64,000 bases of DNA from a virus: positions 1-64,000 of IMG/VR virus record IMGVR_UViG_3300006919_000042; one strand, written 5' to 3'. Below are positions 22,009 through 55,035 of the stretch, one piece after another. The position numbers were made by a program, and so were the translations under genes. The notes under the pieces were generated by a model, which was given only the letters and a program-made list of their open reading frames with translations, did not search any database and was not told the DNA's origin. The stretch's first letter is position 1. Every line of letters starts with the position of its first letter.

Positions 22009-22529
22009 TGTCGCAAAAAGAAACAGTAACCATACCTCTAAGAGGTAAGGTCGTAAATCTACACTTCACTGAATTTGGTAGTGATGTTGATGTAGATGAA
22101 TTGTGTAGAATTGATTACTCAAATATGTACGCTGAGCTAATTACAATATCATCATTGATGAATCGTGTTGGATTGTGGAAAGCTGAGGCAGATAATGCAG
22201 AACAGGAAGCTAGACTTGAAAGAGATGTTGTCATTGCTACAGCTGCAGAGAGAATAGAACAAGAAGAGTTGCCAAAGAAACTAACTGGACCTCAAATGAC
22301 CAAGAAGCTCGATTTAGATCCGGTAGTAATGAAAGCACGTAGAGTTCGTTTACGAAAAGGAAAGGAAGCTGCGTACTTAGATTCACTGTATTGGGCCGTA
22401 AAAAGTAAAGAAAAGAAGGTGGGAGTCATCGGAGAAAAGATGAACTTGACGCCAGAAGAATTTGAGAATAATCTCATTGAAGGTGTCTGGAATGGCATTT
22501 TAGTAAATACGAAGAAAAAATTAATTTAA
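22008..22529 (+). CDS. Possible UvsY-like recombination mediator
   Basis: 173 mostly helical residues. The pattern of YAELITISSLMNRVGLWKAE followed by a long charged helix and a C-terminal YLDSLYWAVKSKEKKVGVI resembles T4 UvsY-type mediators, which help load recombinase on SSB-coated DNA. The gp32-like SSB, RecA and gp46/47 homologues nearby support this. Similarity is by layout only, so the call is tentative. It overlaps the preceding stop. Confidence 0.4.
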   Translation: MSQKETVTIPLRGKVVNLHFTEFGSDVDVDELCRIDYSNMYAELITISSLMNRVGLWKAEADNAEQEARLERDVVIATAAERIEQEELPKKLTGPQMTKKLDLDPVVMKARRVRLRKGKEAAYLDSLYWAVKSKEKKVGVIGEKMNLTPEEFENNLIEGVWNGILVNTKKKLI

Positions 22530-22539
22530 AATCAAAATC

Positions 22540-22890
22540 ATGAAAAAAGTATTATTTATTGTATTAGTAGCATTGTTCACATTTAGTTGTGCAGAAGATG
22601 AATGCACTCAAGACTGTTATGTAGTTGAAGTAGGGTCCTCTGCGAGAGGAATTAGTACTAAAGGAAAAGTATTCGTTTGTCATAAAGGCAGTACGTTGGA
22701 AATTGAGCAATCATCATTGCAAGAACACTTAGATCACGATGATACTGAAGGTAAGTGTGAAACATTGTCAGTTGGTGGTTTAACATATGGAAATGGAATT
22801 AACGTTGAGATAGCTTGTAAGTATGACTTACCATTCATATCAACAGATCCTGATACCGGAAAACAGTATCTATATACAGAATCAAAGTAA
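22540..22890 (+). CDS. Small secreted lipoprotein
   Basis: 116 residues. The signal peptide KKVLFIVLVALFTFSC is followed by AEDE, a type II lipobox with an acidic stretch after the Cys, as in Bacteroidetes lipoproteins. Five or more further Cys residues suggest disulphides in the mature part. It would sit in the host envelope, perhaps altering adsorption of other phages (inference). Confidence 0.65.
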   Translation: MKKVLFIVLVALFTFSCAEDECTQDCYVVEVGSSARGISTKGKVFVCHKGSTLEIEQSSLQEHLDHDDTEGKCETLSVGGLTYGNGINVEIACKYDLPFISTDPDTGKQYLYTESK

Positions 22891-22928
22891 CAAGAATATA
22901 CGTTCTTTAACATAAATTATTTTCGATA

Positions 22929-22986
22929 AAGACTTAGCTGTGATGCTATTGTTGGGACCCGAGTTCGATTCTCGGCAGCTCCACCA
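22929..22986 (+). ncRNA. ssrA: tmRNA acceptor piece (3' half placed first)
   Basis: Reads as the 3' part of a tmRNA. T-stem CCGAG/CTCGG (22959-22963 with 22971-22975) encloses a TTCGATT loop, then CAGCTCC (22976-22982), discriminator A and CCA ending at 22986. CAGCTCC pairs with GGGGCTG at 23078-23084 over 7 bases including the G3-U70 wobble, the alanine identity signal. Upstream, CTTAG, TGCT and ATTGT can pair with TTAAG, AGCA and GCAAT of the downstream piece as helix H2. The left end is approximate. Confidence 0.75.
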
Positions 22987-23077
22987 ATTGGGATCCTTGA
23001 AGCTGGATGGTAACGAAAGAGATTAGAGAAAGCCTTGGCAATGTGCCTACGTCTCTTTCCCCTCGCCGTATAACCCT
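22987..23077 (+). other. Intervening segment between tmRNA pieces
   Basis: About 91 bases joining CCA to the 5' GGGG of the coding piece; in permuted tmRNA genes this part is cut out. It can fold: GAAAGAGA near 23015 pairs with TCTCTTTC near 23052, enclosing a GGCA-ATG-TGCC hairpin. No ORF is apparent. Confidence 0.6.
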
Positions 23078-23218
23078 GGGGCTGACTGGTTTTGACTGCA
23101 ATTTGTAAGCAATTAAGAGAAGATAATTAATATAACTCCAAAAGTTATAAACCTTTTTGAGCCTCAGCTTAGAGCTGTGGCATAAGACGTCTGGGACGTA
23201 CGACAACGTCCCTTTTTT
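23078..23218 (+). ncRNA. ssrA: tmRNA coding piece (5' half placed second)
   Basis: Begins GGGGCTGACTGGTTTTGAC, the tmRNA 5' end as in Bacteroidetes. GCAAT (23098), AGCA (23108) and TTAAG (23113) supply the other strand of H2. A pseudoknot follows: stem TATAACT/AGTTATA (23131-23137, 23143-23149) whose loop CAAA pairs with TTTG at 23156-23159, in the place of PK1. A short frame ends RAVA-stop at 23183-23185, a possible degron tag; another ends ASA-stop at 23170-23172. The rest of the usual pseudoknots are missing, and a terminator ends the gene. The compactness is unusual. Confidence 0.7.
23193..23218 (+). terminator. Rho-independent terminator of tmRNA gene
   Basis: Perfect 7-bp stem GGGACGT (23193-23199) / ACGTCCC (23206-23212), 6-base loop, then six T. 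Confidence 0.85.
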
Positions 23219-23274
23219 AAGAATCAATCGATCCGACAAGATCAAATAGATAATTATTAATCAAATTTAAACAC

Positions 23275-24591
23275 ATGGAAAACAAACCATTTGACCGTAG
23301 TGCCTATAAGGCTACTAGCGTTTCGACCTTAAAAGAGGACGAAGAAAAAGTAAAAGAGCTCACTGGGAATAACCTGGGAGACAGAATCGCATTCTTGAAA
23401 TTACCACCAGGTAAAAGTAAAGTCAGAATATTCCCTGCTCATCTTGATGCAAAATCATTCTGTTATGCACGTACAGTTCACTTCTTAGAATTAGAGTCTA
23501 AGGACAAGGATGGTAAAACGGTTAAGAATGACGCTGGTCAGACAGAATTCAAAAGACGTCCAGTATTCAATGCCAAAATCCATGGAGCATTCCCTAAAGG
23601 AGTTGAGCCAATTGACATCATCGACGATTACATCTCGCGTGTATTTAAGAAAGCACATGCTGAGATCCAAGATGACACTCAACGAAAGAACTACCTCAAT
23701 CCACTTACATTTTTGAAAACTGGAATTATTGGTAAGACCAAATGGTTGGTGTACGCTAACGTGTATAATGAGAATGGTGTGCCTGAGTTTGGTAAACTAG
23801 AAATGGCTACCACTGTCAAAGATAAGTTGAATGAAATTTCAGCAAACCAAGATGGTGAAGGACCGATGACAGTTGACCCATTCACAGATCCAGATGATGG
23901 AAGATGTGTATTTGTTACATACACTCCAGATGAGAAAGATCCGAAGAAGAAGTATTCTGCTGCAATTGACTTTATGAAGCCAACACCGTTGACAGATGAA
24001 GAGATGCAGAATTGGGCTAGTCAAGATTCGTTAGAGAAGCAATTAGTTGGTTCGTATTCATACAGTGATTTCATGAATGCTGTCGCTGGACTTAAAAGGT
24101 TTGATGACCAAAGTACTCACTTACTAAGAGCAAACGGATTCTCTGCAGGATATGGTATCTTTGCTGATGAAGACTTCTTAGATGTATGTGAAAAAGTTGC
24201 CACTTATTTCCCTGAGAAATTTGAAGATGCTGCAGAACCTAACAGTTTTATTGATGGACCTGAGAAAGTCGAGACTCACAAAACTGAGGCAACGACTGAG
24301 AAAGTTTCGCCATTGAAAGCACCAACATTAGAAGAGATGAGTTTAGACCAGTTAGCAGCATATGTTGACAAGCAAGGTTTAGATGTAACCATTCTTCCAG
24401 ATGATGCTGAGGCAGATGTCATTCAAGCAATTCGTGACGAAGAAGCAGATCAAATTGGAGACGTTGCAGCAACTACACCAAATGCAGAAGCAGACGGTGA
24501 AAAAGCATGGGAGGATTTAACTAGTGATTCTGCAGAAGAAGTTGTAGAGACTAGAAAAGCAAGAGGTACAAGAAGTACTCAACTAGATTAA
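23275..24591 (+). CDS. Single-stranded DNA-binding protein, gp32-like
   Basis: 438 residues. The core (about 1-320) has FLKLPPGKSKVRIFPAHLD, aromatic-rich strands and ADEDFLDVCEKVATYFPEKF, resembling T4-type gp32 ssDNA-binding proteins. The last 120 residues are strongly acidic, like the protein-interaction tails of SSBs. It would coat ssDNA at forks and recruit helicase and recombination proteins. Its neighbours RecA, gp46/47 and a UvsY candidate agree. A leucine/acid-rich segment in the tail (LEEMSLDQLAAYVDKQGLD) may be a second small domain. Confidence 0.7.
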   Translation: MENKPFDRSAYKATSVSTLKEDEEKVKELTGNNLGDRIAFLKLPPGKSKVRIFPAHLDAKSFCYARTVHFLELESKDKDGKTVKNDAGQTEFKRRPVFNAKIHGAFPKGVEPIDIIDDYISRVFKKAHAEIQDDTQRKNYLNPLTFLKTGIIGKTKWLVYANVYNENGVPEFGKLEMATTVKDKLNEISANQDGEGPMTVDPFTDPDDGRCVFVTYTPDEKDPKKKYSAAIDFMKPTPLTDEEMQNWASQDSLEKQLVGSYSYSDFMNAVAGLKRFDDQSTHLLRANGFSAGYGIFADEDFLDVCEKVATYFPEKFEDAAEPNSFIDGPEKVETHKTEATTEKVSPLKAPTLEEMSLDQLAAYVDKQGLDVTILPDDAEADVIQAIRDEEADQIGDVAATTPNAEADGEKAWEDLTSDSAEEVVETRKARGTRSTQLD

Positions 24592-38729: not shown

Positions 38730-38813
38730 AAAATACAATCGAATAACCCATTCAAGAACTAAAGATTGTTAGTATTTTTATACTTCAATTTCAAAAAAAT
38801 AACACCCACCAAC

Positions 38814-40808
38814 ATGGCGAGAAAATTCAAACTCAAGCAAGCATTTATAGAGCAATACAAAACCAAAAAGCCTCCATTCGGATTTAATGGCTTGGGAGAA
38901 TTAACATACATCAGGACATATTCAAGAGTAAAAGCAGATGGGACCAACGAGGTTTGGTATGAAACAGTAAGAAGAGTAGTCGAAGGTACGTACAGAATTC
39001 AGCAGCGACATATTGAAAAGTATGGACTTGGCTGGAGTGAGTGGAAAGCTAATAATTCAGCTGAGGAGATGTATGATCGAATGTTCTCAATGAAGTTCCT
39101 TCCTCCTGGAAGAGGACTTTGGGCAATGGGAACAGCACTAACTGAGGAGCGAGATTTGTTTGCAGCATTAAACAACTGTGCATTCGTATCGACTGAGAAT
39201 ATTGGTTATAGTGGCGATGAAGCAGTTAAGCCATTTACATTCCTGATGGATATGAGTATGTTGGGAGTAGGAGTAGGATTTGATGTTCATGGAGAAAATA
39301 AGATTATTCTTGAAACACCTGATACAGAACAAATTACCTATAAGATTCCAGATACACGTGAAGGTTGGGTAGAGTCAGTTTCAATACTACTCAAGAATTA
39401 TTTCATGAAAGGACAGAAGCAAGTAGAATTTGATTATTCAGACATTCGTCCATATGGAACGCTAATTAAAACGTTTGGAGGTACTGCCTCAGGACCAGAT
39501 CCATTAATAGAACTACACAATCAGATCCGCAAGACATTCTCAGATAGACAAGATGAAAGAATCACTCAAACAGATATCGTTGATATCATGAACCACATTG
39601 GTTGCTGCGTAGTTGCAGGTAATGTCAGACGTACAGCTGAAATAGTATTTGGAAGTCCTAAAAGTGATGAGTATTTGAAGCTTAAAAGTTACACATACAA
39701 TGCAGAAAAGGGTATTTATGAAGGAGAAATGGCTCACAGAGCTGATTATGGTTGGACATCAAACAATAGCGTTTATGCTGAATTAGGAATGGATTATTCC
39801 AAAGTAGCTAATCAAACAGCACGTAACGGAGAACCAGGATATGCATGGCTACAGAATATGCAAAAGTTTGGAAGAATGGTTGATCCACCAAACTGGAAAG
39901 ATAAGAAAGCTAAGGGAGCAAATCCTTGTGTAGAACAAACACTAGAATCATTTGAACTATGTTGTTTGGTTGAAACTTTTCCTACACTACATACTGACAT
40001 GGAAGATTACCTAAAGACGTTAAAATACGCTTATTTATATGCCAAAACAGTAACATTAGGGAAGACTCACTGGAGTGAAACTAATAAAGTGATGCTACGT
40101 AACAGAAGAATTGGAACATCACAAAGTGGAATTGCACAATTTGTTGAGAAGCACGGATTAGAAACTTACAGACAATGGTGTAATAATGGATACAATACAA
40201 TTCAAGCATACGATGAAGAGTACAGTGATTGGTTATGTATTCCAAGATCGATCAAAACAACTAGTGTAAAGCCAAGTGGAACAGTAAGTCTGTTGCCAGG
40301 AGTTACACCAGGAATGCACTATCCTGAGGCAGCTTGGTATAAGAGAAGAATCAGAATAGCTACAACCAGCGCACTTGTACAGAAATGTATTGATGCTGGA
40401 TATCACGTTGAGCCTGATGTAGTTAGTAGTAAAACAATGGTAGTTACAGTTCCTGTTCACATTCCAGGAGTGAGAACAATTGATCAAGTGTCGATGTGGG
40501 AACAACTGTCATTAGCTGCATTCATACAGCATTGGTGGGCAGACAATCAGGTAAGTTGTACAGTAACTTTCCAAAAAGAAGAGGGATCGCAGATTAAAGC
40601 TGCGTTGAACTACTTTCAATACAAGCTAAAAGGGATCAGTTTTCTACCAAAGACGGAAGCAGGTGCGTTTGCACAGATGCCTTACGAAGAGATAACAGAA
40701 CAAGAGTATGAAGATAGCGTCAAAGGGATTAAAGCACTAGACTTTAGTGGTGTTGGAGAGGATAGTACTCCAGAGAAGTATTGTGACTCAAGCAGTTGTG
40801 AGATATAA
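38814..40808 (+). CDS. nrdJ: Class II (B12-dependent) ribonucleoside triphosphate reductase
   Basis: 664 residues from the ATG at 38814; the frame reaches 38766, but that part covers the promoter-like region. Features are NNCAF (redox Cys, about 121), NPCVEQ (catalytic N-C-E triad of the radical site, about 372) and ELCCLVE (second redox Cys), with a C-terminal CDSSSC pair for re-reduction. The layout fits monomeric adenosylcobalamin RTPR of the Lactobacillus type rather than NrdA. It makes dNTPs without oxygen or an iron subunit but depends on host cobalamin. Confidence 0.87.
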   Translation: MARKFKLKQAFIEQYKTKKPPFGFNGLGELTYIRTYSRVKADGTNEVWYETVRRVVEGTYRIQQRHIEKYGLGWSEWKANNSAEEMYDRMFSMKFLPPGRGLWAMGTALTEERDLFAALNNCAFVSTENIGYSGDEAVKPFTFLMDMSMLGVGVGFDVHGENKIILETPDTEQITYKIPDTREGWVESVSILLKNYFMKGQKQVEFDYSDIRPYGTLIKTFGGTASGPDPLIELHNQIRKTFSDRQDERITQTDIVDIMNHIGCCVVAGNVRRTAEIVFGSPKSDEYLKLKSYTYNAEKGIYEGEMAHRADYGWTSNNSVYAELGMDYSKVANQTARNGEPGYAWLQNMQKFGRMVDPPNWKDKKAKGANPCVEQTLESFELCCLVETFPTLHTDMEDYLKTLKYAYLYAKTVTLGKTHWSETNKVMLRNRRIGTSQSGIAQFVEKHGLETYRQWCNNGYNTIQAYDEEYSDWLCIPRSIKTTSVKPSGTVSLLPGVTPGMHYPEAAWYKRRIRIATTSALVQKCIDAGYHVEPDVVSSKTMVVTVPVHIPGVRTIDQVSMWEQLSLAAFIQHWWADNQVSCTVTFQKEEGSQIKAALNYFQYKLKGISFLPKTEAGAFAQMPYEEITEQEYEDSVKGIKALDFSGVGEDSTPEKYCDSSSCEI

Positions 40809-53892: not shown

Positions 53893-55035
53893 ATGAGAAA
53901 ATCAGTTAAATTTTTATACAATCACAAGCAAGTTTGCGTTGAGAACATCGCAGATAGTAGTTTTAGTAAATCACCATTGAAGCCTATGCTTTATATGAAG
54001 GATGTTGTAGCACGTTTAGGTAAGTCAGGACTAATTGACATTATATCGAACTTCAAGCCATTCAGAACACGTGACTTTAAGAACGCACACACAGATGAGT
54101 ATGTCAACGATTTCTTCACAGGAGGTCCTAAAAGAGAGTCGAACAGTATTCCTTGGAGCAAGAAACTTGCCAATTCAGTTAAGTGGACAAACAGTAGTCT
54201 TTACAATGCAGTTGAACAATCATATTTAGATCCAAACAATCTTTATGTTAGTCCTACAAGTGGCTTTCATCATGCTGGACCAAACGGAGGTATGGGATTC
54301 TGTACATTTAGTGGTCAGGTGATTGCTAGTTTGAAGATGTACCGTAAATATGGTGTTAAAGGTGCTTATTTAGATTTAGATGGTCACTATGGTAACAGTA
54401 TCGGTGATTCAAGAGAATTTGTTCAAAACAAATATGGTTGGAACCTAGATGATATCATTCAAATGAACATCAACCCAAGAGGAACGGGATCTCAATATAT
54501 TGATGATTTCGTGATGAGCTTAGGTACATTAGCTAATAAGATCCGTCAAGGTGACGTTGATTATATCGTATGGTGTCATGGTGCTGATTCTCACAAGGAT
54601 GATGACTTAGGTAGCCAATTAACTACCAATGAGTGGAAGAGCGTTAGTTCAATATTCTATACTTGGTTAAACAAATTAGAGCTTGAACTTGGACGTAAGA
54701 TTCCTTTGACATTATCGTTATTTGGTGGGTACAGAAGAGATGATTATCAAAGTGTTATCAACTTACATCTTAGTGATTTGATGATAGGTATATCAGTATT
54801 GCTTGGGAAGTTCATGCCAATCGATGATTTAGAGATTAAAGATAAAGTCAGAGTAGTTGACACTACCATCTACATAGATGAAGGTGACTTAGCTGATATG
54901 ATTGATATCACAGGATTGAGTAGAAGCGTTTGTAAATCAGCTCTAGTGAATGCTAAAGGTGATTTCGAAGATGCATTCAAAGCTCTTGATGAAAACAAAG
55001 TTGAAGGCAAGCAAACAAAATTGGTGTTATTTTAG
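53893..55035 (+). CDS. Histone-deacetylase-fold amidohydrolase with UBA-like tail
   Basis: 380 residues. It shows the order of HDAC/acetylpolyamine amidohydrolase motifs: SGFHHAGPNGGMGFC (about 122-136) with the charge-relay His pair, AYLDLDGHYGNS (about 157-168) with zinc ligands Asp and His, WCHGADSHKDDDLG (about 226-239) with the third zinc ligand Asp, and FGGYRRDD (about 276-283) with the catalytic Tyr. Residues about 333-372 (ITGLSRSVCKSALVNAKGDF) resemble a UBA/EF-Ts-type helical domain. It would remove acetyl groups from lysine or polyamine; substrate unknown. It has a strong early promoter and the leader AAAATCGGAAATCATG. Confidence 0.8.
   Translation: MRKSVKFLYNHKQVCVENIADSSFSKSPLKPMLYMKDVVARLGKSGLIDIISNFKPFRTRDFKNAHTDEYVNDFFTGGPKRESNSIPWSKKLANSVKWTNSSLYNAVEQSYLDPNNLYVSPTSGFHHAGPNGGMGFCTFSGQVIASLKMYRKYGVKGAYLDLDGHYGNSIGDSREFVQNKYGWNLDDIIQMNINPRGTGSQYIDDFVMSLGTLANKIRQGDVDYIVWCHGADSHKDDDLGSQLTTNEWKSVSSIFYTWLNKLELELGRKIPLTLSLFGGYRRDDYQSVINLHLSDLMIGISVLLGKFMPIDDLEIKDKVRVVDTTIYIDEGDLADMIDITGLSRSVCKSALVNAKGDFEDAFKALDENKVEGKQTKLVLF

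What the first reader, a model, noticed from the sequence alone, without database searches (positions are those of the whole stretch)
22929..23218. Circularly permuted two-piece tmRNA in a Bacteroidetes-type phage
The tmRNA 3' part (T-arm, CAGCTCC-ACCA ending at 22986) lies upstream of the 5' part (GGGGCTG at 23078). The two ends pair over 7 bases with the G3-U70 alanine signal, and three blocks pair as helix H2. Bacteroidetes hosts are known to have a one-piece ssrA; permutation is established for alphaproteobacteria, some betaproteobacteria and cyanobacteria. A permuted phage copy would be a separate origin of the split form.
Basis: partly seen in the sequence, partly recalled or inferred. 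Interest (0 to 1): 0.92.

Follow-up and report, generated by a model that had tools for sequence, protein, structure and literature searches.

The report
Phage-borne two-piece tmRNA gene
A virus of Bacteroidota bacteria carries a rearranged, two-piece version of the ribosome-rescue RNA (tmRNA) whose sequence is of its hosts' one-piece kind; related viruses of the same bacteria carry it too, so this looks like a further, virus-borne origin of the split form.

Summary
Window 22915-23218 holds a complete circularly permuted tmRNA gene. The acceptor piece comes first (T-arm, CAGCTCC, encoded ACCA ending at 22986), then a 91-nt spacer, then the coding piece from 23078 (7-bp acceptor stem with G3-U70, tag PKVINLFEPQLRAVA, TAA, terminator). 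ARAGORN misses it; Rfam tmRNA_permuted finds it (52.4 bits). That score alone is not proof, since one-piece genes can reach it, but no one-piece reading exists here. It is not alone: 18 distinct members (IMG/VR contigs, Chryseobacterium phage MA9V-3, Maribacter phage Panino, three crAss-like phages, a Zeaxanthinibacter prophage) share the layout and a long-range helix whose strands match only within the same gene (0 of 100,000 re-pairings as good). Their tRNA-like part groups with one-piece tmRNAs of Bacteroidia (98/100). Of 395 Bacteroidota genomes only the prophage carrier had a permuted gene, beside its own one-piece gene. Best reading: a working two-piece tmRNA using host SmpB, from a separate permutation in Bacteroidota phages; a formal tree test cannot reject a single origin of permutation. 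Permuted phage tmRNAs are known, and some of these records already carry an automatic 'SsrA' label: a new variant of a known kind.

The parts
22902..22912 (+). boxA-like leader GTTCTTTAACA, as seen upstream of several relatives and of Bacteroidota one-piece tmRNA genes
   Evidence: only match to GTTCTTT[AG]A in the 64-kb window; similar leaders; role inferred
22915..22986 (+). acceptor (3') piece of the tmRNA; the 5' end is inferred from the distal helix, the 3' end is the encoded CCA
22915..22924 (+). distal long-range helix, acceptor-piece strand AATTATTTTC
   Evidence: 10-bp pairing with 23119-23128; same-place helix with different sequence in most relatives; found in a free fold
22933..22951 (+). 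H2 strand on the acceptor piece (CTTA, TGCT, ATTG blocks)
   Evidence: sequence; duplex prediction
22959..22975 (+). T-arm CCGAG-TTCGATT-CTCGG
22976..22986 (+). 3' strand of the acceptor stem CAGCTCC, discriminator A and CCA
   Evidence: 7/7 pairing with 23078-23084, no other partner nearby
22987..23077 (+). intervening segment (91 nt), predicted to be removed
   Evidence: between the two pieces; folds no better than shuffles (z -0.55); length 16-263 nt in relatives
23078..23218 (+). coding (5') piece of the tmRNA; start fixed by the acceptor stem, end inferred at the terminator
23078..23096 (+). GGGGCTGACTGGTTTTGAC, acceptor stem 5' strand plus D-loop, Bacteroidota-type signature
   Evidence: the exact 19-mer hits genome contigs almost only in Bacteroidota
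23099..23117 (+). H2 strand on the coding piece (CAAT, AGCA, TAAG blocks)
   Evidence: sequence
23119..23128 (+). distal long-range helix, coding-piece strand GAAGATAATT, ending 9 nt before the resume codon
23138..23185 (+). tag reading frame PKVINLFEPQLRAVA and stop TAA; resume codon CCA by homology to GGC/GGT in relatives
   Evidence: homologous tags GKVIQMNNAPVRLAA, GKTINLFREVAIAA, GKTITMVPQPLRAVA, GKVMNVSFAPTVRQFA
23193..23218 (+). intrinsic terminator: 7-bp hairpin GGGACGT/ACGTCCC and six T
   Evidence: 1 found, 0.3 expected

Best explanation
This is a working circularly permuted tmRNA gene of a Bacteroidota phage. One transcript (leader, acceptor piece, 91-nt spacer, coding piece, terminator) folds so that the acceptor stem closes over the spacer. 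RNase P is expected to cut before G23078, and 3' processing ends the acceptor piece at A22986. The two pieces stay together through the 7-bp acceptor stem, H2 and a 10-bp distal helix that sits just before the resume codon, about where one-piece tmRNA has PK1. Host AlaRS charges it (G3-U70, A73). With host SmpB it enters stalled ribosomes and adds A-PKVINLFEPQLRAVA. Shown by sequence: the permuted order, pairings, tag homology, terminator, and a family of relatives with covariation. Inferred: processing, charging, tagging and tag-driven degradation. By sequence it is a Bacteroidia one-piece tmRNA that was permuted in phages, apart from the alphaproteobacterial, betaproteobacterial and cyanobacterial permutations.
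For: Rfam tmRNA_permuted hit over the cut-off. The T-loop and the acceptor partners exist only in permuted order. 18 distinct family members: acceptor stem 7/7 with G3-U70 in all 18, with complementary changes at pairs 5-68, 6-67 and 7-66. Long-range helix: strands of the same gene pair better than strands of different genes, 0 of 20,000 and 0 of 100,000 permutations as good. All 17 relatives lack an encoded CCA, so a chargeable 3' end there needs cleavage at that point. Tag homology. Host type: neighbour proteins match Bacteroidota phages, Shine-Dalgarno-like sites at 2 of 59 ORFs and some TATCTTTG promoter-like sites. Ancestry: signature 19-mer almost only in Bacteroidota genomes; TTTGGAC linker also of Bacteroidia type; set with Bacteroidia one-piece at 98/100. 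Chromosomes: 0 of 394 with a permuted gene besides the prophage carrier.
Against: No RNA data. The CM score is only 5 bits over the cut-off, and one-piece genes can score as high. The window's own duplex energy is not exceptional against shuffles (440 of 2000 as good); its distal helix length is more so (127 of 5000). The resume codon is Pro and the tag ends in AVA instead of AA, so the tag may be weak or altered (a relative, L161, has the same end). AU tests on 70 columns do not reject one common origin of permuted genes (p 0.18-0.35). True betaproteobacterial and most cyanobacterial comparators could not be fetched. Members and Bacteroidia rows were partly found through the shared 5' motif, which favours their grouping.
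Confidence: 0.85

Rival explanations
1. The gene descends from a permuted tmRNA of another lineage (alpha, beta or cyanobacterial) taken up by phages, and later converged on the Bacteroidia tRNA-like sequence to suit host SmpB and AlaRS.
For: Permuted tmRNAs are known in phages of those lineages (PMC9004378). AU tests do not reject a common clade of permuted genes (p 0.18 and 0.35).
Against: Both pieces carry Bacteroidia characters (GGGGCTGAC.GG.TTTGAC; TTTGGAC; resume context AACTGGC). The free tree joins phage and Bacteroidia one-piece rows at 98/100 and sets alpha permuted rows apart at 100/100. Alpha genes have a different T-loop and D-loop. L013 keeps a host-like spacing and a GEN- tag.
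Confidence: 0.2
2. It is a decoy, not a tagging RNA: the phage makes the tRNA-like part to occupy SmpB and block host trans-translation, as proposed for the tRNA-like-only gene of mycobacteriophage DS6A.
For: No SmpB gene in the phage record. Pro resume codon and AVA tag end are unusual. A tRNA-like-only phage tmRNA inhibits tmRNA (PMC4131195; PMC11915505).
Against: A full tag frame with stop, homologous tags in relatives (most ending in AA, VA or FA) and a helix at a fixed distance before the resume codon all point to kept coding function.
Confidence: 0.12
3. It is a copy of the host gene carried to repair the attachment site after integration into ssrA, as suggested for the tmRNA of Maribacter phage Panino.
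For: Phages do integrate in tmRNA genes; the Panino authors propose it (PMC11590407).
Against: A permuted gene cannot restore a split one-piece gene, and the Panino copy is itself permuted. In the Zeaxanthinibacter lysogen the one-piece gene lies on another contig and the permuted gene lies in the prophage region with tRNA-Met and tRNA-Ile.
Confidence: 0.02
4. Artefact or fragment: halves of a one-piece tmRNA shuffled by assembly or decayed.
For: A single virus record from a metagenome-type collection (G000); ARAGORN finds nothing.
Against: Same order in many independent records, including isolated phages MA9V-3 and Panino and a bacterial isolate genome; intact acceptor stem, helices, tag and terminator.
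Confidence: 0.01

Closest known systems
Rfam RF04321 tmRNA_permuted (alpha, beta and cyanobacterial two-piece tmRNA)
   Same: Order acceptor piece - spacer - coding piece, G3-U70 acceptor stem, T-arm, H2, tag and stop in the coding piece
   Different: Built from three bacterial lineages; the window gene has Bacteroidia-type sequence, about 60 nt from the 5' end to the resume codon (59-63 in most members), a distal helix before the resume codon, and lives in phages while the hosts keep a one-piece gene
Two-piece tmRNAs of aquatic phages (e.g. Methylophilales phage Melnitz, Pelagibacter phages; PMC9004378)
   Same: Phage-borne permuted tmRNA
   Different: Melnitz's gene is related to alphaproteobacterial permuted genes, and phage genes are said there to follow cyanobacterial, gamma- and alphaproteobacterial lineages; no Bacteroidota lineage is described in the passages read
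tmRNA 'SsrA' features in Chryseobacterium phage MA9V-3, Maribacter phage Panino and crAss-like phages cr50_1, cr10_1, cr114_1
   Same: Same family as the window gene: permuted, Bacteroidota-type linker, similar layout and tags
   Different: Records carry an automatic label without comment on permutation; their 3' ends lack an encoded CCA, and the cr114_1 spacer holds a tRNA-His-like gene
One-piece tmRNA of Bacteroidia (RF00023; tags GENNYALAA and similar)
   Same: Near-identical tRNA-like part (window 84% over 69 columns to L019), GGC resume context as in the phage relatives, boxA-like leader in several
   Different: Hosts: one RNA, resume codon about 95 nt from the 5' end; phage gene: two pieces, about 60 nt, nothing after the tag but a terminator hairpin

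Membership tests
circularly permuted (two-piece) tmRNA | 3' acceptor segment lies upstream of the 5' coding segment on the same strand | tested here: met
circularly permuted (two-piece) tmRNA | 7-bp acceptor stem between the pieces with G3-U70 and discriminator A | tested here: met
circularly permuted (two-piece) tmRNA | covariance-model match over the curated cut-off | tested here: met
   RF04321, 52.4 bits against 47; specificity at this score is imperfect
circularly permuted (two-piece) tmRNA | H2 and further long-range pairing between the pieces, kept by covariation | tested here: met
circularly permuted (two-piece) tmRNA | tag reading frame with a small hydrophobic C-terminus and stop | tested here: met
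   PKVINLFEPQLRAVA*, homologous to tags ending in AA; the AVA end departs from the usual AA
circularly permuted (two-piece) tmRNA | transcript is cleaved into two RNAs and works in trans-translation | not testable with these tools
   needs RNA and protein experiments
alpha/beta/cyanobacterial permuted lineages | sequence of the tRNA-like part groups with that lineage | tested here: inconclusive
   free tree: groups with Bacteroidia one-piece rows, not with alpha permuted rows (98/100); AU test does not reject the union; beta and most cyanobacterial rows not available
one-piece tmRNA (RF00023) | 5' segment upstream of the 3' segment, about 350-400 nt apart | tested here: not met
   no partner in that order; RF00023 matches only the 3' end at 34.1 bits, below its cut-off of 47

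The most novel reading that the evidence does not exclude
A further independent permutation of tmRNA arose in tailed phages of Bacteroidota (now in Crassvirales and in other flavobacterial phages and a prophage) and is kept there while the hosts retain the one-piece gene, so infected or lysogenic cells run a one-piece and a two-piece tmRNA side by side, with different tags.
Probability: 0.65. Interest if true: 0.72.

Novelty: new variant of a known kind. Interest (0 to 1): 0.58.

Why it matters
In the literature held here the split tmRNA has three bacterial lineages of origin. A lineage whose tRNA-like part is of Bacteroidia type but which was found only in phages and a prophage suggests that permutation can arise and spread in viruses without the host ever switching. 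It also gives natural cells (a Zeaxanthinibacter lysogen; Chryseobacterium and Maribacter with their phages) in which a one-piece and a two-piece tmRNA with different tags can be compared directly: does the phage RNA outcompete the host RNA, what does it tag, and what does the phage gain? It also speaks against a published guess that such a copy restores an interrupted host gene. Practically, ARAGORN misses several members and RF04321 has false positives, so phage annotation can be improved.

Tried and rejected
DNA-pattern scans demanding encoded CCA found no relatives in viral or genome collections, because the relatives lack an encoded CCA; the 5' 19-mer worked instead. BLASTN of the window tmRNA against named phages gave only tRNA-Ala fragments, and other members gave nothing or mostly tRNA and T-arm fragments. 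The two nearest polymerase relatives in IMG/VR (L002, L003) lack the gene, as do two Cbastvirus phages. RF01850 gave no match over its cut-off in 200 Pseudomonadota and a cyanobacterial-type pattern gave only two permuted rows, so the outgroup sampling stayed thin. The spacer was considered as a structured RNA: no further Rfam match and no excess stability. Low-scoring RF04321 hits in Pseudomonadota were examined and two proved to be one-piece genes. SmpB was sought in the phage record and not found. Papers: no held paper found describes a Bacteroidota-phage permuted lineage; Sharkady and Williams 2004 is not held, Mao et al. 2009 was not read, and supplements could not be opened.

Full report
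**Observation.** The sequence at 22915-23218 reads as a permuted tmRNA gene. T-arm 22959-22975, acceptor 3' strand CAGCTCC 22976-22982 and ACCA to 22986 precede a 91-nt spacer and the coding piece, which starts GGGGCTG at 23078. The stem is 7/7 with G3-U70. Rfam's permuted-tmRNA model matches 22936-23185 with 52.4 bits, cut-off 47, while ARAGORN reports nothing. Because RF04321 scores of 50-57 bits turned out to fall on one-piece genes in two Pseudomonadota genomes, I did not rely on the score. Within 22101-24000 the only GTTCGA T-loop is the one at 22963, CAGCTCC has no complementary 7-mer upstream (22401-22960) and GGGGCTG has none downstream (23091-23800), so no one-piece reading exists.

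**Anatomy.** In addition AATTATTTTC (22915-22924) pairs with GAAGATAATT (23119-23128), 9 nt before the resume codon, and a free fold of the whole transcript finds this helix, the T-arm and the acceptor stem together. The tag, placed by homology to relatives, is PKVINLFEPQLRAVA followed by TAA at 23183-23185. A terminator hairpin with six T follows directly, so there is no room for the pseudoknots that follow the tag in one-piece tmRNA. A boxA-like GTTCTTTAACA, the only such site in the window, lies just before the acceptor piece; boxA-like leaders also precede several relatives and host one-piece genes. Its role here is inferred.

**Host.** G000 is an 88,235-base virus record. Its polymerase (DNA polymerase III alpha type) is closest to Chryseobacterium phage MA9V-3, Cellulophaga and Tenacibaculum phages. 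The protein encoded just after the tmRNA matches Bacteroides phages, a gut phage record and the Chryseobacterium phage. Only 2 of 59 ORFs have a Shine-Dalgarno-like site, and some intergenic TATCTTTG motifs of Bacteroidota promoter type are present, though the motif is not in clear excess overall. The ribonucleotide reductase is nearest to actinobacterial phages, a sign of gene exchange. No tRNA gene was found in the record and no SmpB, so the RNA would have to use host SmpB.

**Relatives.** The exact 19-mer GGGGCTGACTGGTTTTGAC returns essentially Bacteroidota chromosomes in GTDB genomes, nearly all with one-piece tmRNA. In IMG/VR the same and a degenerate motif return many contigs with permuted genes. 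Named records follow: Chryseobacterium phage MA9V-3, Maribacter phage Panino and crAss-like phages cr50_1, cr10_1 and cr114_1. One bacterial isolate, Zeaxanthinibacter sp. PT1, has a permuted gene next to tRNA-Met and tRNA-Ile, in a region with phage DNA polymerase and integrase genes, as well as a one-piece gene on another contig. Among 395 Bacteroidota genomes this is the only one with a permuted match; 60 of 61 have a one-piece match.

**Covariation.** In 18 distinct members the acceptor stem is always 7/7 and always has G3-U70, with complementary changes at pairs 5-68, 6-67 and 7-66; members were selected for a 7/7 stem, so the changes, not the 7/7, are the evidence. The long-range helix before the resume codon has unrelated sequences in different phages but pairs within each gene. 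Re-pairing strands between genes never reached the observed sum (0 of 20,000 by energy; 0 of 100,000 by helix length). For the window the helix exceeds all 34 mismatched combinations. All 17 relatives lack an encoded CCA after the discriminator; in them a chargeable end needs cleavage at that point, which favours two separate RNAs.

**Ancestry.** Both pieces have Bacteroidia characters: the short D-loop with TTTGAC and the linker TTTGGAC before the T-arm. In a tree of 70 columns the phage genes and Bacteroidia one-piece genes form a set with 98/100 support (with one long stray row), and the window's nearest rows are Bacteroidia one-piece genes. Alphaproteobacterial permuted genes form a set of their own with 100/100 support. 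L013 retains one-piece-like spacing (104 nt) and a GEN- tag like the hosts. Holding all permuted genes together costs 23 log units but is not rejected by the AU test (p 0.18; phage plus alpha p 0.35), so separate origin is favoured, not proved. Whether permutation happened once or more within these phages cannot be told.

**Function.** The simplest reading is full trans-translation: alanine charging by host AlaRS, host SmpB, tag addition, release. The unusual Pro resume codon and AVA end could alter efficiency or fate of tagged proteins; phage L161 shares the RAVA end. A decoy role is possible but does not explain the kept tag frame and resume geometry. Repair of an integration site is contradicted by gene order.

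**Known or new.** Permuted tmRNAs in phages are known: 53 of 133 unique phage tmRNAs in a survey of a 2021 database, 50 of them aquatic (PMC9004378), described there as following cyanobacterial, gamma- and alphaproteobacterial lineages. The 2025 tmRNA database holds 79 phage sequences and models permuted genes from three bacterial lineages (PMC11915505); its supplement, which may contain some of these phages, could not be read. Panino's tmRNA was noted without mention of permutation in the passages found (PMC11590407), and Cellulophaga phage Calle has a tmRNA (PMC8776804) not examined here. No held paper found names a Bacteroidota-phage permuted lineage.

Noticed in passing
L006/L011, L292 and L161 (spacer between the tmRNA pieces): A 93-nt block inside the spacer is 85% identical between phages whose tags differ, including a possible hairpin TTTTAGG...CCTAAAA; a third contig with this block also has a permuted tmRNA. 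The removed spacer may hold an RNA of its own.
   Followed up: partly
L167, L168, L169 (crAss-like phages cr50_1, cr10_1, cr114_1): The spacer is 97% identical over 100 nt between cr50_1 and cr10_1 and holds a T-arm-like piece; in cr114_1 a tRNA-His-like gene lies inside the spacer.
   Followed up: partly
L167 871-1037: RAGATH-22 RNA motif (155.6 bits) upstream of the permuted tmRNA of crAss-like phage cr50_1.
   Followed up: no
L288, L289 (G432:C42, G463:C47): Rfam RF04321 gives 50-57 bits, over its cut-off, on one-piece tmRNA genes of Pseudomonadota: false positives of the new permuted model.
   Followed up: yes
window 53893-55035: Phage ORF with a histone-deacetylase-like domain (PF00850, E 4.5e-18), unusual in a phage.
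   Followed up: no
window 23132-23148: The resume codon sits in the loop of a small hairpin (ATAACT-CCAAA-AGTTAT); L069, L171 and L010 could form similar ones by sequence.
   Followed up: no
L013 and L157 downstream of the tmRNA 3' segments: A shared stretch GAGGACAACC.TTAAGA.AACCAC...AGGAGACAGAGATGTTA follows the T-arm in a permuted and in a one-piece viral tmRNA locus.
   Followed up: no
L004, L008, L014: One-piece viral tmRNAs with Bacteroidota-type 5' ends and short tags (ATVKLAMAA, AKVKLAMAA) placed 186 nt from the 5' end by ARAGORN.
   Followed up: no
window 38766-40808: Ribonucleotide reductase closest to actinobacterial phages (45-47% identity) although the phage is of Bacteroidota type.
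   Followed up: no
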